Assembly: GCA_026129095.1 (NCBI GenBank)
Contig: JAHCIT010000005.1
Location: 248,001-312,000, forward strand
Direction of reading: 5' to 3'
From: Deltaproteobacteria bacterium
GTDB taxonomy: Bacteria; JAGRBM01; JAHCIT01
DNA length: 64,000 nucleotides
In this document: positions 2,044 to 62,613 of the stretch, piece after piece
How the letters are laid out: each line of letters begins with the position of its first letter
Position numbering within the stretch: position 1 is the first letter of the stretch
Notes under the pieces: model-generated
The model's input: only the letters and a program-made list of their open reading frames with translations
What the model was told of the DNA's origin: nothing
The model's database searches: none
Position numbers and translations under genes: made by a program

Positions 2044-2170
2044 CTTGCGCCCAGTATATCACGGCCCCCTGATCCCCATAATCAGAACTGATTTCTGTTC
2101 TGGATAACCCTTTCCCGGCATTCCCAAGGGGCAAGACCGCCTGGCGGCCGCGCCTCACCTCAAACGAGGC

Positions 2171-3591: not shown

Positions 3592-4242
3592 TCAGGGTTT
3601 CAGGGCGACGGCCCCGCGGAACAGGACCTGCTTGATGTCCTCGAACATGAGGCGGGCTTCCTGCCCGTTCTCCATGAAGTTGCTGTGGACGACGAACCCG
3701 GCGATCACCGCCTGCACCAGCGCGGCCGCCCGGTCCAGGGGGAGCATCAGCCGGCCGGCGTCGGGGCCGAGCGCCGCCCGGATCGTCTCGCACACCAGCC
3801 GGTGCTGGAGGCGGTCGAACTCCCGTATCCGCTCCCGGAGGCGTTCGTTGAAGTTGGCCGTGGACCACATCTCCATGAGGAAGGCGACGCGCTCGCGGTT
3901 GGCGATCAGCAGGTCGAACAGGGCGTCAGCGGCCGTGAGCAGCCGCTCGACCGACGGGGCCTCGACACGCGAACGCTCCAGCACGCCCGCCGCGATCCCC
4001 TCGCTCATGCGCGTCACGGCGGCGATGAGGATCTCTTCCTTGGAGGCGAAGTGGTAGTGGAGAAGGCTTTTCGACACCCCCGCGGCGAGCGCGATCTCCT
4101 TGGTGGAGGCGCCTTCGTAGCCGTGGCGGGCGAAACACTGGATGGCCGCCTCGACGATGCGGTCCACCGATTCGGGAACAGAATCAGCACCCTGCGCCGG
4201 TCTGGCGGTTTCGGCATCGGTTTGGCGGGGGTTCGTGACCAC
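3592..4242 (-). CDS. TetR-family transcriptional regulator
   Basis: The N-terminal helix-turn-helix is typical: 'IVEAAIQCFARHGYEGAST', then KEIALAAGVSKSLLHYHF and SKEEIL. The C-terminal helices form the ligand and dimerisation part. I choose the GTG at 4242 as the start because the longer frame (ATG at 4284) would place the perfect palindrome at 4256-4269 inside the coding region; with the GTG the palindrome sits just upstream, where a TetR repressor would block its own promoter. The downstream partner is the diiron protein. The divergent gene at 4355 could share the operator. The ligand is unknown. Confidence 0.85.
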   Translation of the reverse strand: MVTNPRQTDAETARPAQGADSVPESVDRIVEAAIQCFARHGYEGASTKEIALAAGVSKSLLHYHFASKEEILIAAVTRMSEGIAAGVLERSRVEAPSVERLLTAADALFDLLIANRERVAFLMEMWSTANFNERLRERIREFDRLQHRLVCETIRAALGPDAGRLMLPLDRAAALVQAVIAGFVVHSNFMENGQEARLMFEDIKQVLFRGAVALKP

Positions 4243-14141: not shown

Positions 14142-16924
14142 GCCGTGCCGAAACAGTCGCTGGGTTTTCCCCCCGTTACGGGCGGTGGGCCGAATCGAAC
14201 ACGGAACGGGCCGCCAGCATCGCCGCCGATCCGCCTGCAGTAACGCCGGAATATCTCGAAACCCGTTTCGCCGGGATGAGCGGCGGACCATCGAACTCCC
14301 GGGACGATTTCTGCCGTAACCTTCGCACCCTCAAATACGAGGCGATGTATTCCATCTGCGTGCAGGACTTCTGCGGTCTGGTGACGCTTGGGGACTACTC
14401 CAGAATCCTCGCCCAGATCACCGCCACCGGAGAGTTTGCCGTCGATGCCGCGACACGCTGGGCACTGGCGGAAGCGGAACGGCAATGGGGCCCGCCCGTC
14501 TATCCCGGTTTCGACGGGAAATCCGCCACGGCGCAGTTCGCCGTACTTGGCCTGGGAAAACTTGGCGCCGGCGAACTCAACTTCAGCTCCGACGTGGATC
14601 TCATCTTTCTCCACTCGACCGTGACCGGCGAACCGGAAAAGGGTGCAACGGCGCTGCCACCGGCCGACTACTTCAGCCGTGTGGGGCAGATGCTGTCACG
14701 GGCGCTTTCGGACCGGACCGGCGACGGTTTTGTATTCCGCGTGGACCTCAATCTGCGGCCCGAGGGCAAGGCTGGCCCGCTGGTGCTGCCGCTTGAGGCG
14801 ATGGCGAACTACTACGAGATGTTCGCGGCCGCCTGGGAGAAATCGGCGCTCGCCAAGGCCCGGCCCGTGGGCGGCAGCCGTGCACTGGGCGGACTGTTCC
14901 TGAAGCAGATGGAGCCGGTGATCTACCGGCGCTATCTGGATTTCGCGGCGGTGAGTTCGATCAGGTCCATGAAGGGACTGATCGAGGACCGGGAGAGCCA
15001 GAAAAAGCAGGGGACCATTTCCGTCAAGCTGGGCGAGGGCGGCATACGCGATCTCGAGTTTTTCGTGCAGGCGCTGTGCCTGCTTTACGGCGGGAAGATC
15101 CCTGACCTGCGCACCCGCTCGGCAATAGAGGGATTACGGCAGCTCCGGCTGAACCGGCTCCTGAGCCAGGTGGAACACGACCGGCTGCTGGAGGCGTATT
15201 TGTTCCTCCGGCGCACGGAAAACCATATCCAGATGGCCGAGGAAGAGCAGGCCTATGACCTCCCCGCCCATCCGGAAGCGCTGGAGAACCTCGCCCGGTC
15301 GATGGGATTCACTGGTGGCGCCACTGCCGCCACGGAGCCGTTCCTGGAAGAACTCACCGACCACATGAAGACGGTCCGGCAGAGCTTCGACGCATTTTTC
15401 TCCGAAAGCAGGGACAGCCGGATCGGACAGCGGCTCCGTTCCCAGTTCAACCTGGCAGCGCTGTCCAGGGACATCGAGGAACAGCTTGACGCCATTGCGC
15501 GCCGCCTAGAGGGCGAAATCAGCCGTACTGCCGACGCCGAGATGGCCCATACGAACCTTGAGCTTCTCATGGATACCATAGGCCGGAGGATGAGCTTCTG
15601 GGGGACGCTCCTGGACAATCCCGCCCTGTGCGAACGGCTGGTATCGGTACTGGGCTCCAGCGATTTCCTGTCGAAAATCCTGGTTCGCAACTGGCGCATG
15701 CTGGACCGGATACTGTCCGCGGATTCGGCCGACGCATCGGCTTCGATCGGGACACTGCGCGAATCGTTCGCCGGCATCCGTGCAGGGTGCGCACCGGATG
15801 CAGGTGCAACGGAAGTGGCCGAAGAGGAGATCAACTGTCTCCGCACCTTCCGGAACCTGCATACGCTGGAGGTCGGCTTGCTGGATCTGGCGGGCGACAT
15901 CGACACGCCCGAGGCCTCCCGGCGGCTGACATGGATCGCACGGGTTTGCCTCGAAGAGGCACTGAAACTGGCCCTTAAGGATTCCCTCCACCGGCATGGC
16001 GAACCTGTCGACGAGGAAACCGGCAAGCCCGCCCGGTTCGCCATCATCGGGATGGGGAAGCTCGGCGCCGGAGAGATGAGCTACGGGTCGGACCTCGACG
16101 TGATCTTCCTTTTTTCCGGTGCCGGGGAAACCCGGACCACCCGCGAGGGGCAGAAGCAGCTGGCCAACATCGAGTTCTTCATACGTGTGGCGCAACGGCT
16201 CATTTCGTACCTGACAGTGAAGACGGCCGAGGGCTCCTGTTACGAAGTGGATGCCCGCCTGCGGCCCTCCGGCAACGCGGGGCTTCTGGTGACGAGTTTC
16301 CGCCAGTTCTGCACCTACCACGAAAAGAGCGCCCAGACCTGGGAAAAGCAGGCGCTCCTTAAGGGCCGGTTCGCCGCCGGTGACGAGCCGTTCGGGTCAG
16401 AAATCGAAAAGGCCATCCGCCACATACTCATAGAGGCGCCTACAGGCAGTATCGCTTCCGAGATAGCCCATTTGCGGTCACGGATGGAAAAGGAACTCGC
16501 AAAAGAGGACATTCGCCACAAGAACCCCAAGACGGGCAGAGGCGGAATCGTCGATATCGAATACACGGTGCAGTATCTCCAGCTCCGGCACTTCCGGCAG
16601 CACCCGGACCGGCTCTGGCTGGCCTCCACGCTGGACGCGATCCGCGAGCTGAACGGACTGAAACTTCTGCCTGACGAAGACGCTCAAGTGCTTCTGGACG
16701 GTTACACATTCATCCAGAGGCTGAGCAGCCGCATGCGGATCGTGCAGGACCGGCCGATGAAGGACATAGATCTGGAACCCACCGAACTCGACGCCCTCGC
16801 CTACCGGATGGGCTACTCGGGTGGAGGCCGCACAGAAGCCCGCCGCCGTCTCATGGATGACTACCGGCGCCATACCGAGGCGGTACGTGACGTCTATCTC
16901 CGTACGCTCGGTATCCGGGAGTAG
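14138..16924 (+). CDS. glnE: Bifunctional glutamine synthetase adenylyltransferase/deadenylyltransferase
   Basis: 928 residues, full length. Two nucleotidyltransferase domains in tandem each carry the G-KLGAGE and SD(V/L)D(L/V)IFL motifs: GLGKLGAGELNFSSDVDLIF in the N-terminal half and GMGKLGAGEMSYGSDLDVIF in the C-terminal half, followed by the arginine-rich 'RGGIVDIEYTVQYLQLR' segment. The N-terminal domain removes AMP from glutamine synthetase and the C-terminal one adds it, under PII/glutamine control. It starts inside the preceding small membrane-protein gene. No glnA or glnB in view. Confidence 0.96.
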   Translation: MSRAETVAGFSPRYGRWAESNTERAASIAADPPAVTPEYLETRFAGMSGGPSNSRDDFCRNLRTLKYEAMYSICVQDFCGLVTLGDYSRILAQITATGEFAVDAATRWALAEAERQWGPPVYPGFDGKSATAQFAVLGLGKLGAGELNFSSDVDLIFLHSTVTGEPEKGATALPPADYFSRVGQMLSRALSDRTGDGFVFRVDLNLRPEGKAGPLVLPLEAMANYYEMFAAAWEKSALAKARPVGGSRALGGLFLKQMEPVIYRRYLDFAAVSSIRSMKGLIEDRESQKKQGTISVKLGEGGIRDLEFFVQALCLLYGGKIPDLRTRSAIEGLRQLRLNRLLSQVEHDRLLEAYLFLRRTENHIQMAEEEQAYDLPAHPEALENLARSMGFTGGATAATEPFLEELTDHMKTVRQSFDAFFSESRDSRIGQRLRSQFNLAALSRDIEEQLDAIARRLEGEISRTADAEMAHTNLELLMDTIGRRMSFWGTLLDNPALCERLVSVLGSSDFLSKILVRNWRMLDRILSADSADASASIGTLRESFAGIRAGCAPDAGATEVAEEEINCLRTFRNLHTLEVGLLDLAGDIDTPEASRRLTWIARVCLEEALKLALKDSLHRHGEPVDEETGKPARFAIIGMGKLGAGEMSYGSDLDVIFLFSGAGETRTTREGQKQLANIEFFIRVAQRLISYLTVKTAEGSCYEVDARLRPSGNAGLLVTSFRQFCTYHEKSAQTWEKQALLKGRFAAGDEPFGSEIEKAIRHILIEAPTGSIASEIAHLRSRMEKELAKEDIRHKNPKTGRGGIVDIEYTVQYLQLRHFRQHPDRLWLASTLDAIRELNGLKLLPDEDAQVLLDGYTFIQRLSSRMRIVQDRPMKDIDLEPTELDALAYRMGYSGGGRTEARRRLMDDYRRHTEAVRDVYLRTLGIRE

Positions 16925-44708: not shown

Positions 44709-44747
44709 ATGCGGCCGCGATTGTGGCACATGACGGCACATATGTGA

Positions 44748-55148: not shown

Positions 55149-56420
55149 ATGGTCAAGATGAAGCCACGAGCAGCAGATTTCTACCGAATTAATCCGCCCG
55201 GCGTTTGTTCTCGCCGAAATAGATTAACTGCCGTCGATCTTTTTGCAGGCGCAGGCGGCATCTCGCTTGGGTTGATGAATTCTGGGTTCGATGTGCTTTT
55301 CGCGTCTGATATTTCCGGTCCGTGTATGGCGACGCATACGCTAAATCTTCCGAATATTAAATTCCAGCAAACCGATATCAGGTCTCTATCAGGCGCGAAA
55401 ATATTGCGTCAGACTGGTTTAGGTCGGGGCGAGCTGGACCTATTGATTGGTGGGCCACCGTGCCAAGGTTTTAGTATCCTCGGACAACGTGTCCTTGAAG
55501 ATCCTCGTAACCGCCTGTTTCAAGAGTTTGTTCGCATTGTTGGCGAACTGAAGCCCCGCGTCGCCGTGATCGAAAATGTCCCGGGCCTCGCTACCCTGAG
55601 CAAAGGTGTGCTTTTGAGTAGAATCGGGGCAGCCTTCGGAAGATTGGGTTATCGTGTGGAATGCGCGGAGCTTTTAGCTGCCCAATATGGTGTTCCCCAG
55701 ATGCGTTGGAGAATGTTTTTCGTCGCATGGCGGTCAGATTTCGGCCCGCGAACTGCGGGTTTCCCCGTCCCAACTCATGGGCGATTGGGAATTGGTGATC
55801 TAGTCCCAAATCGAAAGATTACAGACGTCCAATCCAAAGGCTTCCTGTCAATTTGGGATGCAATTAGTGATCTTCCGCCAATTGAGAGCGGCGAAGTCGG
55901 AACGATATATACGAATAAACCCAAATCGCCGTATCAAGTAGCCATGCGAGCAAACTGCAAACGCGCCGAATTGCACAATCACTATGCTCCAAAATTGTCA
56001 CCCATAAATCTCCAGAGAATTCAGACGCTCCAACCCGGCCAAGACTGGCGAGACTTACCACGAGAATTACTCCCTCCGGGGATGCAGCGCGCGCTACGAA
56101 AGGACCACACTCGTCGTTTTAGACGGATGAAGTGGGATGGCATTGCGCGCGCCATCATCACTAGATTTCGCGATCCCAAATCGGGGGAGTACATCCACCC
56201 CGACCAAACCCGCACGATAAGCATTCGGGAGGCTGCTCGTATTCAATCGTTTCCAGATTGGTTCGTGTTTGAAGGGAACTATACCGATCAGTACGATCAG
56301 ATCGGGAATGCCGTTCCGCCACTATTGGCACGCGCTGTAGGAACTGAAATCCAACAGGCTCTTGCAGCAGCGAGTGTTGAGCGTATAGTGCCAAAATCAC
56401 GATATAAAATTCCTGCGTGA
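55149..56420 (+). CDS. DNA (cytosine-5) methyltransferase of a NotI-like system
   Basis: 423 residues from ATG 55149 (TTG 55146 is also open). C5-methyltransferase motifs are in order: DLFAGAGGISLGL binds SAM, GGPPCQGFSILGQR carries the nucleophile (C105), VIENVPGLATLS, QYGVPQMRWRMFFVAW, and the late RIQSFPDWFVF and QIGNAVPPLLARAVG. The target-recognition part lies between about residues 205 and 330. It should protect host DNA from the restriction enzyme whose gene starts one base before its stop. GC content falls sharply relative to the left neighbour. Confidence 0.92.
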   Translation: MVKMKPRAADFYRINPPGVCSRRNRLTAVDLFAGAGGISLGLMNSGFDVLFASDISGPCMATHTLNLPNIKFQQTDIRSLSGAKILRQTGLGRGELDLLIGGPPCQGFSILGQRVLEDPRNRLFQEFVRIVGELKPRVAVIENVPGLATLSKGVLLSRIGAAFGRLGYRVECAELLAAQYGVPQMRWRMFFVAWRSDFGPRTAGFPVPTHGRLGIGDLVPNRKITDVQSKGFLSIWDAISDLPPIESGEVGTIYTNKPKSPYQVAMRANCKRAELHNHYAPKLSPINLQRIQTLQPGQDWRDLPRELLPPGMQRALRKDHTRRFRRMKWDGIARAIITRFRDPKSGEYIHPDQTRTISIREAARIQSFPDWFVFEGNYTDQYDQIGNAVPPLLARAVGTEIQQALAAASVERIVPKSRYKIPA

Positions 56421-57538
56421 TGAAGAAACCAAGCAAAGCCGCTCGTGGAAATTATGTTAGCGAATGGTTCGGCCATCGCGTATTTCCGAATGTCGTAGCC
56501 GGGAAAAAGAGTTTGAAAGAGCAGCAAGCAGAGTCGTGCCCCTTCTTAACCGCTGCAATTGGTGAGGTCAGAACATGTATCAAAAGTAGTGCTGCGCGAG
56601 GTGTGTGCACGATCAACACTGCTACTAGTGGTACCAGAATGGATTGGCTGGTCTGCCCATACCGAGCTCTTGATCCGTCACTTCTTGAAAGTGCGGTCAG
56701 ACGGCTATTCGGATTTCGCGAAAGCCAAGCTGTATATATCATTCCTGCCATTCGGTTAGAGGCAGAGAAAATCAGAGAAGAGATAGGCCAAAGGCTCCGA
56801 TCAGGAGATCGGGTATTTATTTATTTTGACGAAAAACTAGGCGGCGAACTAAGTATACCCGCAACTGCGAAGTCGCCAGAGTTTTCCTTCGACGTCACAA
56901 TAATCGAAATCGAATTATCAGATGGTCGGCCGCATGTTGGCCGTTTTGGCGTTATTGAAATTCAGACCATGGATTTCCACGGCTCATATAGAAAGGCCGT
57001 TGCTAATCTCAAGGACGCTCTTCGGCTGCACCCAAAAGATTTTGCTACATCATTACAGACCAATCAAAACTGGTTGAGTGAGGATATTGAAGGTCCAAAT
57101 ATAGCCAATGTGTTTAAACGAACATTCTATCAAATGATGTTTAAGTTTCAGCTCGGTCAAAATCCACGTTGTGCAGGATGTGTCCTTGCCGTTCCACTGT
57201 CGGTTTGGGAAAGTTGGCAGCGTCACTTGGGACAACCAGAGCTGAGATCAGAGCCAGATGGGACATTCAGTCTGTTCCCAAGTGGTGGTGCCCGACCCCC
57301 CATTGTACCGGCTTGGATATACGTATTTGATATAAGTTCTATGAGTCGAACATCGCCCAGCCCACTAGTAATTTCAAAGATTATTGCTACCGATGCGACA
57401 TCTATTTCTCACTATGCACTTCAGGTCGCACCCGCAGCAGCATTAGAAAATATAGCATCTGCAACGGGTATGTTGACGCTTTTGGCACGCCGTATAAGCA
57501 GGCTTTGGCCGGAGTTAGGTACAACGTTAACGGTGTGA
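56420..57538 (+). CDS. NotI-family type II restriction endonuclease
   Basis: 372 residues from the ATG at 56420, overlapping the methyltransferase stop (TGATG). As I recall the NotI sequence, the match runs along the whole protein: EWFGHRVFPNVV, CPFLTAA, WLVCPYRALDP, EKLGGELSI, PEFSFD, VIEIQTMDFHGSYRKAV, GPNIANVFKRTFYQMMFKFQ and RCAG. Cysteines 40, 53, 63 and 79 fit NotI's iron site, and D158, E180 and Q182 its PD-(E)xQ catalytic set. NotI cuts GCGGCCGC; I infer a similar target. An alternative GTG start adds one residue. Confidence 0.88.
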   Translation: MKKPSKAARGNYVSEWFGHRVFPNVVAGKKSLKEQQAESCPFLTAAIGEVRTCIKSSAARGVCTINTATSGTRMDWLVCPYRALDPSLLESAVRRLFGFRESQAVYIIPAIRLEAEKIREEIGQRLRSGDRVFIYFDEKLGGELSIPATAKSPEFSFDVTIIEIELSDGRPHVGRFGVIEIQTMDFHGSYRKAVANLKDALRLHPKDFATSLQTNQNWLSEDIEGPNIANVFKRTFYQMMFKFQLGQNPRCAGCVLAVPLSVWESWQRHLGQPELRSEPDGTFSLFPSGGARPPIVPAWIYVFDISSMSRTSPSPLVISKIIATDATSISHYALQVAPAAALENIASATGMLTLLARRISRLWPELGTTLTV

Positions 57539-58177: not shown

Positions 58178-58816
58178 CTAATGCAAAAATTCATTAAATT
58201 TGAAGATGAAATTTCCGACCGATGCGACTTTGCTTAAGGGTTCGAGCAGTCTTGAAATAATACCGGCGTCGGGCTTCGTCTTAGAGAACTGCCGTTCAAT
58301 TTCATCCAAGTCGCCCAAATGCTCACGTCTCTCAACGTCGGTCAGATTTGCGTCACTGCTTAGAGCGTTCTTTGCGGCCCTAATTAGGGTGGCCAAAGTT
58401 TCTGAATCGACTGGACTGGGAAGGGTTTGGCTAATTGAGCTGTGCTTTCCCGTGAAAGCTATCTGGTTACTATTTCCATGCACGTTTACGACATTTACTT
58501 CGTGCTGGACATTATTGCCATCGTCGCTGCCGTCACGGTTTGATTCGACAAACATTCGTCCCTTCCCGGTCAGTTCCGCGTGAACCATTCCCTTGGGAAG
58601 AAATAGGCATTTGGCTATGCCTTGATCTTGCAGAGCATGCCCAGCGTCGATGAACCATCCGGAATCTGGCACGTCTATATCGAGAGCTCCCGCAATTTCC
58701 GGAAGCGGATAGTAGTGTGAACCCTTCTCTTGATCGAGGAGATAAAGCTGCTCAACAAGTTGGTTGAAGAATTCTGTGAAGGTAACCCGTGCCATAGAAG
58801 TTTTTTCCTGCGTCAT
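58178..58816 (-). CDS. Hypothetical protein with an amyloid/RHIM-like G-N-Q motif
   Basis: 212 residues. The N-terminal 95 residues form a winged-helix-like region (FTEFFNQLVEQLYLLDQEKG, YYPLPEIAGALDIDVPDSGW, AELTGKGRMFVES). Residues 107-131 read VNVVNVHGNSNQIAF then TGKHSSISQT, alternating hydrophobic and G/N/Q/S residues like bacterial amyloid-signalling or RHIM-type motifs. A helical C-terminal part follows (LATLIRAAKNALSS, VERREHLGDLDEIERQF). It is divergent from the MBL gene, with a 270-base gap. A role as regulator or effector of the conjugation system is speculation. Confidence 0.6.
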   Translation of the reverse strand: MTQEKTSMARVTFTEFFNQLVEQLYLLDQEKGSHYYPLPEIAGALDIDVPDSGWFIDAGHALQDQGIAKCLFLPKGMVHAELTGKGRMFVESNRDGSDDGNNVQHEVNVVNVHGNSNQIAFTGKHSSISQTLPSPVDSETLATLIRAAKNALSSDANLTDVERREHLGDLDEIERQFSKTKPDAGIISRLLEPLSKVASVGNFIFKFNEFLH

Positions 58817-59086: not shown

Positions 59087-60226
59087 ATGTTGAATGCTGA
59101 AGTGGCATTTAAGGGAGTTACCGTGACCTCCGAAGACTTGTATCCGAAAAGCAATGTAATGCGTGTCCTTTTTCTGTACGTTGGGCAGGGAGAGGCAACC
59201 CTTTTTCTCGTACCTGACGGCCTTGGTGGACACATCTCCATGCTTGTGGACTGCAACTATTCGCCGTCACTCAACGGAATCGACCTGCCATGCTTTTTAG
59301 CGGATACGCTCCCTAAGAATTCCAAGGGCAGACCGGTTCTCGACTTGTTCGTTAATACGCACCCTCATTCGGATCATCTTGGTGGCCTCAAAGCTCTACG
59401 GCAGGCCATAGAGATTCAGAACGTCTGGCACAGCGGTCATAATCCTGGCCGGGAACACGGTGATGCCTATAAAGAGCTGCAAACCCTGATGAAAGAAGTG
59501 GAAGACCGAAAGGGAAAGGTTGAAGAACTTCAGGGATCCCGGACGGCGGTCAAATTCGGAGCCGCTGAAGTTCATATCCTGGCGCCAGCCGAATACGTGA
59601 AAGATGAAATCGCCGACGAAAAGGCCGAAACACGCTATCAGCGTATACATGAGCATTGTGCGGTGCTTCGGGTAAGATACGGCTCCGCCGGCAAAAAAGT
59701 AGGTGTCCTGGTGACCGGGGATGCCGATAAAGCCGCATGGGAAAATCACATCACCGATTACCACGGTGCAAAAGAAGAGAACCGGCTAAAATCGGAAATA
59801 CTTAGTGCTTCCCACCACGGGTCCAGAACGTTTTTCAAAACGGATGAGGACGATGACAAGCCGTACACCAAACATCTCGATTACATCCAGCCAGAACGCT
59901 TGGTAATTTCCGCGCCGGCCCAGAAGGACAGTCCTCACGATCATCCGCACGATGATGCTCTTGAACTTTATCAAACATACATCGAAACGGACTGCATTCA
60001 CCATATGGGAGCCGGGCGTTGGTCATTTCAACTCGATGTTGATGACAAAGGGGATTACGAACTTGAAGAGGACCGAGGTAAAATTGCGGATGAATACCCG
60101 GCTTCGGATGATGATGAAAAATCAGACAAAGGCGGCGGCAGTGGCGGCACAAAAGCTACCATCGCCAGCACGCCCATCAGCCGTGTCGGCAAAACCCATC
60201 CAATGGGGATGCCAAGCGAGCGGTAA
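59087..60226 (+). CDS. Metallo-beta-lactamase-fold hydrolase, partner of the E2-E1-JAB fusion
   Basis: 379 residues. The MBL core is of the ComEC/competence type: VLFLYVGQGEATLFLV at the start, the metal motif NTHPHSDHLGGL (H92, H94, D96, H97), VLVTGDADKAAW (D212) and SASHHGSRTFF (H243/H244). The last 45 residues are an acidic, Gly-rich disordered tail (DEKSDKGGGSGGTK) ending in a short basic segment, KTHPMGMPSER. No signal peptide, so it is cytoplasmic. Its stop shares one base with the start of the fusion gene (TAATG), so the two products are made together. The substrate is unknown; nucleic acid, a nucleotide signal or a conjugate are possible. Confidence 0.82.
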   Translation: MLNAEVAFKGVTVTSEDLYPKSNVMRVLFLYVGQGEATLFLVPDGLGGHISMLVDCNYSPSLNGIDLPCFLADTLPKNSKGRPVLDLFVNTHPHSDHLGGLKALRQAIEIQNVWHSGHNPGREHGDAYKELQTLMKEVEDRKGKVEELQGSRTAVKFGAAEVHILAPAEYVKDEIADEKAETRYQRIHEHCAVLRVRYGSAGKKVGVLVTGDADKAAWENHITDYHGAKEENRLKSEILSASHHGSRTFFKTDEDDDKPYTKHLDYIQPERLVISAPAQKDSPHDHPHDDALELYQTYIETDCIHHMGAGRWSFQLDVDDKGDYELEEDRGKIADEYPASDDDEKSDKGGGSGGTKATIASTPISRVGKTHPMGMPSER

Positions 60227-62613
60227 TGTTCCCAGGCATTCCATGGTTCGTTGAGCATCCTGATCTGTATCGATCGGAGGCTAGTGAACTTCGAGAAAAG
60301 TTCCCCGAAATGACGGAGATGCCGGAACCGGATATTTCGGGGCGTGTCTACTTCTATGGCGCTTTGAAATTCCACTCCGGACGAACGACAACTTCCGTCA
60401 ATATCGTTTTGTATTATCCAGCCGATTTTCCGTATTCGTCGCCCGCTGTTATCCCGGTAGAAAAATTGCCCCACGAGTTGGGGCAAGAAGCACCGCTTCT
60501 GCTTGATCGCTCGAATATCCGTTTCTTTTCCGCCCGTCACCAAATGGCTAGCGGAATGATTTGTCTTTACGAAGCAGATGGCCGCCCTTGGCACCATCTT
60601 GCCGTGACGGGTGTTGAAGCACTCCACAGGGCCAGGAAATGGCTACGTCACGCAATACGAGGGCAATTCCCTAGCGATCTCGATGGCGATCATGCAGAAC
60701 TCTCAGAACATTACCAGGCAACTGGTGACGTATTGGTCGGCCCGGCAATGCATCGAACTAATCTAGGGGCTCCGAAGCGGTTCCTAGCCGTTCAACTTCG
60801 ACCTAAGCAGCAACTATTCGCGGTAACTCATGTCCAATATGAACACGGATGGGCAGATGATCGAGCCGTCTTTAATAGACTAATGCCTGAAGCATTTGGG
60901 AACGAGCAGTGGTGGGATTCCGCAGGGACGACAGAAAATCTGGATATTTTGCGGGTGAAACCGGACTGTCTGGTCGGCGAGTGCTACCCCATTTCCGGGG
61001 AGCCTCGGCCATATCGATCAGCTTCCGAATTCGCCCAAACGCTATATCCGGAAAAGGGCGCCGCAGCCATTGAAGCTCTTCAAGAAAAATATGCTGTTGA
61101 GCGGACCTGCCGGGAAAAGGTGGTATTGCCTATTCAATATCCAGGCAGGGCAGGCAGTTGGGAATGGCTATTTATCGAATTGCAAATAAAAAACACTGCT
61201 CCTGAACGAATCAAAGCTCCCACAGGGGAGATGGTCCCTCTCTTAGATTTAAGTCCTTCATCCCGAACAGCACTCGCTACTGCTGTCCCAACAGTATTAC
61301 GCCAACATGATTTACAGCGCAGAAGTTTGGAGCTTCGCAATGGTGGCCGAGCCCAGCCGGACATTAATAACTGGACGGTATCGCTATTTGGAGCCGGAGC
61401 CATCGGCTCCGAAACGGGCGTGCTTCTTGCCAAAGCGGGAATCGGGAAACTGAAGATATGGGACAACCAAATCCTTTCAGCCGGGAATACCATTAGGCAT
61501 CTATCCGGGCTCTTTGGTGTCGGGTTTCCCAAGGCGTCGCTGACGGAACTGATGGTTAAGCAGCACAATCCGCATTGTGAGGTGGCGTCAACTTTTGGGG
61601 ATGCCCTCGATGCGATAACGAGAAACCCGAATGATGCATGGGGATCCAATGCGACTATCAGCACCATCGCCGATGATGGTGTCGAGTTGCGGTTGAATAA
61701 GCTGGCAGTATCGAGCGGCAAGACGGTTTACTATTTGCGCGCCCTCAGGTCCGGTTCGGTAGGTCAACTGCTGCGGGCTATACCTGGCAGTGGTGCGTGT
61801 CTGGAATGTCTGGCGCATTATCTGCAAGATGAGACGCCGGATCCAAAATCGTTCCCAATGGATGAAATCCCCGGAGAAATTGTCGCTCGTGAATGCGGTA
61901 GACCCATACTTGCGGCAAGTGCAATGGATCTTACGACCGTAGCGGCATTTGGCAGCAGACTTATTCTTGGCGATCTGGCGCAACCGTCTGAAAACAATTT
62001 ATGGGTTTGGACGACCGATGGTATCCCAGGACATTCGGAACTGGCCAAGCCATTTTCGATGGCCTCGTCGTTTTTACCTCCGCACCCAGCATGTTCAGTG
62101 TGCCGCCCCAAGGCGATTGGCAATGTTCATTTTCCAAAGGACGTTCAAGCTCGAATGATAGATTTGGCTCGGCAACATGAGCCGAACGAGACGGGCGGTA
62201 TGCTTATCGGCTATCGGAAGGGACAGGACGTATTTGTTCTGGAGGCAAGTGACGCGGGACCAAAGGCCACCAGCATGCCGTCACGGTTTGAGAGAGATGG
62301 GGGTTACAGTGAAACGTATCTAATGGATGCCGTGCGGCGGAATGGCAACGGTATTGATTATGTCGGTGATTGGCACAGTCACCCCGGATATCCGGCAGTT
62401 CCTAGCCCAAGGGACGCGGTTTCTATGCATGATATTGCGGCAGATCCGGGATACCGTACCGATTACCCGATAATGGCGATAGTCGGCCTGCCCGATAGCG
62501 GGAAATCGGGTGATCCTGAATTCACCTGTTACTGCTTTCCCAAGGGGAGCAGTAGTTACAGCGTCGGTGTGAGGATCACCGATTCTGCTCCAGTATCACG
62601 AACAGGCGATTAA
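60226..62613 (+). CDS. E2-E1-JAB triple-fusion ubiquitin-like conjugation protein
   Basis: 795 residues, three domains. E2-like (1-150): YYPADFPYSSPAVIP and a catalytic-Cys region ASGMICLYEADG (C113). A linker region (150-380) is unassigned. E1/ThiF (380-630): the ATP loop LFGAGAIGSETGVLLAKAG, D413 in IWDNQ, R424 in NTIRHL, zinc-type CLEC (525/528) and CSVC (623/626), and a possible thioester Cys in ARECGRPIL (C557). JAB/JAMM (640-795): E655, then WHSHPGYPAVPSPRD (H717, H719, S727, D730), the complete zinc-protease set. It could activate, transfer and remove a ubiquitin-like modifier. CBASS Cap2/Cap3 is the nearest well-known analogue. Confidence 0.9.
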   Translation: MFPGIPWFVEHPDLYRSEASELREKFPEMTEMPEPDISGRVYFYGALKFHSGRTTTSVNIVLYYPADFPYSSPAVIPVEKLPHELGQEAPLLLDRSNIRFFSARHQMASGMICLYEADGRPWHHLAVTGVEALHRARKWLRHAIRGQFPSDLDGDHAELSEHYQATGDVLVGPAMHRTNLGAPKRFLAVQLRPKQQLFAVTHVQYEHGWADDRAVFNRLMPEAFGNEQWWDSAGTTENLDILRVKPDCLVGECYPISGEPRPYRSASEFAQTLYPEKGAAAIEALQEKYAVERTCREKVVLPIQYPGRAGSWEWLFIELQIKNTAPERIKAPTGEMVPLLDLSPSSRTALATAVPTVLRQHDLQRRSLELRNGGRAQPDINNWTVSLFGAGAIGSETGVLLAKAGIGKLKIWDNQILSAGNTIRHLSGLFGVGFPKASLTELMVKQHNPHCEVASTFGDALDAITRNPNDAWGSNATISTIADDGVELRLNKLAVSSGKTVYYLRALRSGSVGQLLRAIPGSGACLECLAHYLQDETPDPKSFPMDEIPGEIVARECGRPILAASAMDLTTVAAFGSRLILGDLAQPSENNLWVWTTDGIPGHSELAKPFSMASSFLPPHPACSVCRPKAIGNVHFPKDVQARMIDLARQHEPNETGGMLIGYRKGQDVFVLEASDAGPKATSMPSRFERDGGYSETYLMDAVRRNGNGIDYVGDWHSHPGYPAVPSPRDAVSMHDIAADPGYRTDYPIMAIVGLPDSGKSGDPEFTCYCFPKGSSSYSVGVRITDSAPVSRTGD

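What the first reader, a model, noticed from the sequence alone, without database searches (positions are those of the whole stretch)
55149..57538. NotI-like restriction-modification pair with predicted GCGGCCGC specificity
The endonuclease follows the NotI layout, including four Cys for the iron site and a D-E-Q catalytic set. NotI-type enzymes are rare. I can see GCGGCCGC in the window at 2144-2151, 3722-3729, 14825-14832 and 44711-44718, none noticed within the island, so host sites would need methylation by the adjacent enzyme.
Basis: partly seen in the sequence, partly recalled or inferred. Interest (0 to 1): 0.6.

Follow-up and report, generated by a model that had tools for sequence, protein, structure and literature searches.

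The report
NotI-type restriction system, cytosine-5 partner
This is a two-gene DNA-cutting and self-marking defence system whose cutter is a close relative of the laboratory enzyme NotI, but whose self-marking enzyme puts the protective methyl group on a different atom of cytosine from the enzyme predicted for most NotI relatives.

Summary
Window 55149-56420 encodes a complete cytosine-5 DNA methyltransferase (MTase). The overlapping 56420-57538 encodes a NotI homologue: phmmer E=4e-91 and 45% identity to NotI (PDB 3BVQ/3C25), and its AlphaFold model matches DNA-bound NotI at TM 0.87-0.91. The iron-site cysteines (41/54/64/80) and the D159-E181-Q183 set are invariant in all 30 NotI-clade proteins aligned.

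The GCGGCCGC specificity is a reasonable inference and is not shown. The host has 395 sites (O/E 0.90, no avoidance), and none of the nine other hosts of this subtype avoids the motif. The lack of sites in the island is chance (0.75 expected).

Beyond the finding, NotI relatives split by partner. The window and nine proteobacterial loci use this m5C MTase. Eighteen others, including the sister of NotI, use an SPPY amino-MTase, which on an all-G/C site can only be m4C. One branch of the nuclease tree separates the two; its direction is unresolved. The m5C MTase's nearest plasmid and phage relatives (40-43%) sit beside distant 'NotI family' (PF12183) nucleases. Some Streptomyces hosts of m4C-type systems avoid GCGGCCGC up to tenfold, supporting that target for that branch. 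It is a new variant of a well-known kind, of modest interest.

The parts
55149..56420 (+). C5-cytosine DNA methyltransferase (423 aa), predicted protective partner; motifs I DLFAGAGG, IV PPCQGFS, VI ENV, VIII QYGVPQMRWR, IX REAARIQSFPD, X QIGNAVPPLLA
   Evidence: Pfam DNA_methylase 1.8e-63; motifs; 60-65% identical to the partners of nine other NotI-type nucleases
56154..56192 (+). core of the MTase target-recognition region (IITRFRDPKSGEY), nearly invariant in all ten m5C partners and different in the plasmid PF12183 partners (ILTKCDPHWGAY)
   Evidence: alignment; sequences; position
56420..57538 (+). NotI-type restriction endonuclease (372 aa from ATG 56420; GTG 56417 is an alternative start); overlaps the MTase stop (TGATG)
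   Evidence: phmmer 4.3e-91 to NotI, 45% identity, model TM 0.87/0.91 to 3C25
56537..56656 (+). Cys4 iron site: Cys41, 54, 64, 80 (codons at 56537, 56576, 56606, 56654; numbering from GTG 56417)
   Evidence: invariant in 30/30 NotI-clade proteins and in the PF12183 relatives aligned; positions
56891..56965 (+). catalytic set D159, E181, Q183 (codons at 56891, 56957, 56963) of the PD-(D/E)XK-type site
   Evidence: invariant in 30/30 and in PF12183 relatives
2144..2151 (.). GCGGCCGC site in host DNA
3722..3729 (.). GCGGCCGC site in host DNA
14825..14832 (.). GCGGCCGC site in host DNA
44711..44718 (.). GCGGCCGC site in host DNA, last before the low-GC island

Best explanation
A complete Type II restriction-modification system of the NotI kind. 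The nuclease binds its palindrome as a dimer, with a Cys4-iron element positioning the DNA-reading parts, and cuts unmodified DNA with a D-E-Q metal-dependent active site. The target is most likely GCGGCCGC. The MTase, made first from the overlapping operon, places m5C in each strand of the same site and blocks cutting. Shown here: homology, fold, intact motifs, operon, and conserved pairing in ten genomes. Inferred: activity, dimerisation, iron, the target sequence, which C is methylated, and that m5C blocks cutting. It differs from the NotI branch proper in using m5C where that branch is predicted to use m4C. The NotI fold appears to tolerate either mark, since NotI itself is blocked by m5C at CpG (PMC4741620). 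It sits at the start of a lower-GC, probably recently acquired, defence segment.
For: REase. MTase. The same pair in the same order directly upstream in nine more loci (L002-L009, L011), 60-65% MTase identity; L007/L009 and L002/L004 are sisters in both trees. Specificity: 25 polar residues invariant in 30/30; 32 of 43 polar positions fixed in NotI plus five carriers (four strongly and one moderately avoiding) are kept in all ten m5C-clade proteins; only S60A and L145I separate the clades. GCGGCCGC avoidance in four actinobacterial carriers of m4C-type relatives, O/E 0.10-0.25; in Streptomyces 3 of 5 carriers against 3 of 60 non-carriers have fewer than 60 sites per Mb, Fisher p=0.004. NotI cuts only sites unmethylated at CpG (PMC4741620). 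GC falls from about 0.63 to 0.50 across the segment.
Against: No cleavage or methylation data. No avoidance of GCGGCCGC in this host (395 sites, O/E 0.90; 1.04 in an 864-kb sample) or in any m5C-subclade host. Three Streptomyces without a detected NotI relative also avoid the motif, so avoidance is not exclusive to carriers. Positions 124 and 138, fixed in the avoiding set, vary or differ in the m5C clade. The phylogenetic order of the two chemistries is unresolved.
Confidence: 0.72

Rival explanations
1. An active Type II system whose specificity has drifted from GCGGCCGC, for example relaxed or altered at the outermost base pairs (CGGCCG core or another 7-8 bp site), with nuclease and m5C MTase matched to that site.
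For: About 55% of nuclease residues differ from NotI. No avoidance of GCGGCCGC in any m5C-subclade host. Q138 of the avoiding set is D in 8 of 10 m5C-clade proteins and position 124 varies. The MTase recognition block differs from those of PF12183-paired MTases.
Against: 25 polar residues invariant across the whole clade including NotI; only two conservative clade-separating positions. No other 8-bp palindrome is strongly avoided in the host sample, and CGGCCG is at O/E 0.92.
Confidence: 0.2
2. A relic or silenced system: the MTase is active but the nuclease is inactive or unexpressed, so the pair no longer restricts.
For: No expression data; no host avoidance, as expected without restriction pressure.
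Against: Both frames are open and full length, all Cys and catalytic residues are kept, the model is confident throughout, and the pairing is conserved in ten distant genomes.
Confidence: 0.06
3. The neighbouring m5C enzyme is not the cognate protector; it is an unrelated MTase next to a NotI-type nuclease.
For: Most NotI relatives use a different MTase class.
Against: Translationally overlapping genes, the same MTase family in nine further loci, nearest MTase relatives beside NotI-family nucleases, parallel sister pairs in the two trees.
Confidence: 0.02

Closest known systems
NotI restriction-modification system (Nocardia otitidis-caviarum; PDB 3BVQ, 3C25)
   Same: Nuclease fold, Cys4 iron site, D-E-Q catalytic set, 45% identity.
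   Different: Partner chemistry. The nearest NotI relative seen (L028, Rhodococcus, sister to NotI at 100/100) sits beside an SPPY PF01555 amino-MTase, as do 17 others. The window uses a C5-cytosine MTase. The M.NotI sequence itself was not available here.
PF12183 'NotI family' nuclease + DNA cytosine methyltransferase pairs on proteobacterial plasmids and a Pseudomonas phage (e.g. pESA2, pVIM_Pse-KSS435, vB_Pae_U8)
   Same: Closest outside relatives of the window's MTase (40-43%); nucleases share the Cys4 and D-E-Q residues; same gene order in nearly all.
   Different: Nucleases are about 300 aa and only remotely similar (hhalign probability 98.6%); the MTase recognition block differs, so a different target is expected; the target is unknown.
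DraI (R.DraR1-M.DraR1) system for CCGCGG (PMC10855626)
   Same: Precedent for one cytosine-only site being served by m4C in one system while the catalogued systems use m5C.
   Different: GIY-YIG nuclease, unrelated to NotI; there m4C is the exception, and R.DraR1 still cut m5C DNA.
Fused m4C-MTase/NotI-type nuclease (L026, Proteobacteria MAG)
   Same: Same NotI-type nuclease domain.
   Different: MTase is SPPY class (PF01555) and fused to the nuclease in one 714-aa protein.

Membership tests
NotI-type restriction endonuclease | Sequence homology to NotI over the full length | tested here: met
   phmmer 4.3e-91, residues 11-366; 45% identity
NotI-type restriction endonuclease | NotI fold | tested here: met
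   Model pLDDT 89.9; 3C25/3BVQ the only significant PDB matches, TM 0.84-0.87 by query length, 0.90-0.91 by target length
NotI-type restriction endonuclease | Cys4 iron site | tested here: met
   Cys41/54/64/80 invariant in 30/30; iron itself not testable
NotI-type restriction endonuclease | D-E-Q catalytic residues | tested here: met
   D159, E181, Q183 invariant in 30/30
NotI-type restriction endonuclease | Cleaves GCGGCCGC | not testable with these tools
   Only indirect: residue conservation; no host avoidance in this subclade
NotI-type restriction endonuclease | Match to Pfam PF12183 (NotI) | tested here: inconclusive
   No match at E<=10, but the NotI sequence itself also fails to match, so the profile does not test membership
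NotI system, SPPY amino-MTase (m4C) branch | SPPY/PF01555 partner MTase | tested here: not met
   Partner is a C5-cytosine MTase; the pair is therefore filed as a sister subtype
Type II restriction-modification system | Adjacent nuclease and separate MTase genes | tested here: met
   Overlapping genes at 56417-56420
Type II restriction-modification system | MTase protects against the cognate nuclease at one site | not testable with these tools
   Needs methylome or protection assay
C5-cytosine DNA methyltransferase | Motifs I, IV (PPC), VI (ENV), VIII, IX, X | tested here: met

The most novel reading that the evidence does not exclude
NotI's lineage once changed its protective mark. The m5C MTase kept by the window's subclade is the older partner, shared by descent with the plasmid PF12183 systems, and the well-known NotI branch replaced it with an m4C enzyme while keeping GCGGCCGC. 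That would be a natural case of one endonuclease family swapping methyl chemistry at a fixed target.
Probability: 0.3. Interest if true: 0.5.

Novelty: new variant of a known kind. Interest (0 to 1): 0.34.

Why it matters
If the target is the same, an m5C partner for a NotI-type nuclease gives a natural tool for protecting NotI sites with m5C. It also gives a clean test of how a restriction enzyme accepts two different protective marks. The survey exposes an annotation gap, since the Pfam 'NotI' profile misses NotI and the close relatives tried, and it shows strong natural avoidance of GCGGCCGC in some Streptomyces and Actinomadura. As a biological surprise it is modest: restriction systems are known to exchange MTases.

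Tried and rejected
Host avoidance as proof of specificity: negative in this host and subclade. Absence of sites in the island as evidence: rejected, 0.75 expected. Viral contigs, phage records and plasmid records for the nuclease: no relatives by sequence. Rooting the NotI clade with PF12183 nucleases: the root moves with the columns used (AU p about 0.21 either way), so no claim is made on which chemistry is older. The PF12183/m5C association was first seen through MTase hits and so was biased; looks that start from the nuclease show PF12183 also with DPPY adenine-type MTases (L053, L054, L059) and an SPPY one (L058). Literature on M.NotI chemistry and the NotI structure paper: not found or not held. 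Published target for a PF12183 member through Acinetobacter NEB 394: none found. Link between the RM pair and the neighbouring 6A-MBL-like genes: not seen beside the other NotI-type loci.

Full report
Observation. The first is a 423-aa C5-cytosine MTase with all standard motifs. The second overlaps its stop codon (TGATG) and is a 372-aa protein whose only significant PDB sequence relative is NotI (phmmer 4.3e-91; 45% identity). An AlphaFold model built only on window and locus sequences (pLDDT 89.9, pTM 0.87) matches DNA-bound NotI 3C25 (E 1.8e-43, TM 0.87 by query, 0.91 by target) and nothing else significantly apart from the apo NotI entry. The four cysteines and D159/E181/Q183 are invariant in 30 NotI-clade proteins and in the remote PF12183 relatives aligned, so they mark the whole superfamily. 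[quoted passage not shown]

The sites. GCGGCCGC occurs four times in the window, against 5.25 expected. It is absent from the low-GC segment, where fewer than one is expected. The host genome (3.67 Mb, 23 contigs) has 395 sites; with the observed 7-mer and 6-mer counts 437 are expected, O/E 0.90. A same-order genome in which no relative of the nuclease was found has 0.87. In 864 kb of host sequence no 8-bp palindrome with at least 20 expected copies is strongly avoided. So the host carries no footprint of restriction at any 8-bp palindrome tested. That fits a recent arrival, in line with the GC fall from about 0.63 to 0.50, but does not test the target.

Relatives. A scan of one genome per species for 84,980 species found 29 further NotI-type loci, a lower bound because the scan needs one of two peptide patterns. 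None was found in viral contigs, phage records or plasmid records. In nine (L002-L009, L011; Alpha- and Betaproteobacteria where the record names a class) the same m5C MTase family lies directly upstream, 60-65% identical to the window's, with a nearly invariant recognition block. Seventeen have a separate SPPY amino-MTase gene, directly upstream in sixteen and downstream on the other strand in L015; L022 is a second copy in the genome of L019. In L026 a PF01555 MTase is fused to the nuclease in one 714-aa frame. Seven of these 18 MTases were scanned against Pfam and all match PF01555. L012 and L030 begin at contig ends. The site has only G and C, so an amino-MTase for it can only make m4C. 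SPPY is the m4C signature cited in PMC10855626.

Chemistry switch. On the nuclease tree the m5C- and SPPY-paired proteins are separated by one branch. Which is older is unresolved: adding the remote PF12183 nucleases as outgroup puts the root on either side depending on the columns kept (AU p about 0.21 both ways). The window's MTase has its nearest outside relatives (40-43%) on plasmids and one Pseudomonas phage, each beside a NotI-family nuclease in the records opened (annotated as hypothetical in the phage and in one plasmid, but matching PF12183 or near-identical to one that does). The more distant plasmid and phage MTases opened (under 40%) are not. In the MTase tree the NotI-clade m5C enzymes are a clade (100/99) next to those (94/89). 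PF12183 nucleases also occur with DPPY and SPPY MTases, so this nuclease superfamily exchanges MTase classes generally. A published precedent for m4C against m5C at one site is the CCGCGG system of Deinococcus (PMC10855626).

Specificity. Twenty-five polar residues are invariant in all 30 proteins, and only S60A and L145I separate the two groups. Four actinobacterial hosts of SPPY-type systems (L018, L019, L020, L024) have GCGGCCGC at O/E 0.17, 0.22, 0.10 and 0.25 while the reversed control word is at 0.91-0.98. Among Streptomyces, 3 of 5 carriers but also 3 of 60 non-carriers fall below 60 sites per Mb (Fisher p=0.004). Avoidance thus supports GCGGCCGC for the m4C branch but is not exclusive to carriers, and other hosts, including all ten of the m5C subclade, show little or none. 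NotI is blocked by CpG methylation (PMC4741620), which makes m5C a plausible protective mark for this fold. The prediction stands at about 0.7.

Verdict. A real, apparently intact NotI-type Type II system with a cytosine-5 partner: a sister subtype of the NotI system.

Noticed in passing
window 59087-62613: MBL-fold protein followed by an E2-E1-JAB fusion, resembling the 6A-MBL antiphage system but far below the curated cut-offs (79.8 of 220 bits; 137 of 320 bits): a divergent ubiquitin-like conjugation defence next to the RM pair.
   Followed up: partly
window 58178-58816 (-): Small protein with weak matches to the candidate defence family PDC-M14B (1.7e-06) between the RM pair and the 6A-MBL-like genes.
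   Followed up: no
L026:4981-7125: Natural fusion of a PF01555 amino-MTase (m4C-type branch) and a NotI-type nuclease in one 714-aa frame.
   Followed up: partly
Pfam PF12183 against NotI, window, L007, L013, L019, L028: The Pfam family named NotI does not match NotI (residues 12-365), the window protein, L007 or L013 even at E<=10, nor L019 and L028 at 0.1; it matches only the remote plasmid group.
   Followed up: yes
genomes of L018, L019, L020, L024 and Streptomyces G114, G117, G130: GCGGCCGC is strongly depleted; G114, G117 and G130 have no detected NotI-type gene, so a lost system or another enzyme for the same site may exist.
   Followed up: partly
host genome (864 kb sampled): CTCGAG is strongly avoided (75 observed, 310 expected), also CGCGCG and GTCGAC; possible past restriction systems.
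   Followed up: no
L057:1351-2652: A 433-aa frame that starts as a C5-cytosine MTase and runs into a PF12183 nuclease sequence without the MTase C-terminal half: a deletion chimera or assembly error.
   Followed up: no
G000: The host phylum is represented by only two genomes in the held set, so the host is from a very sparsely sampled lineage.
   Followed up: no
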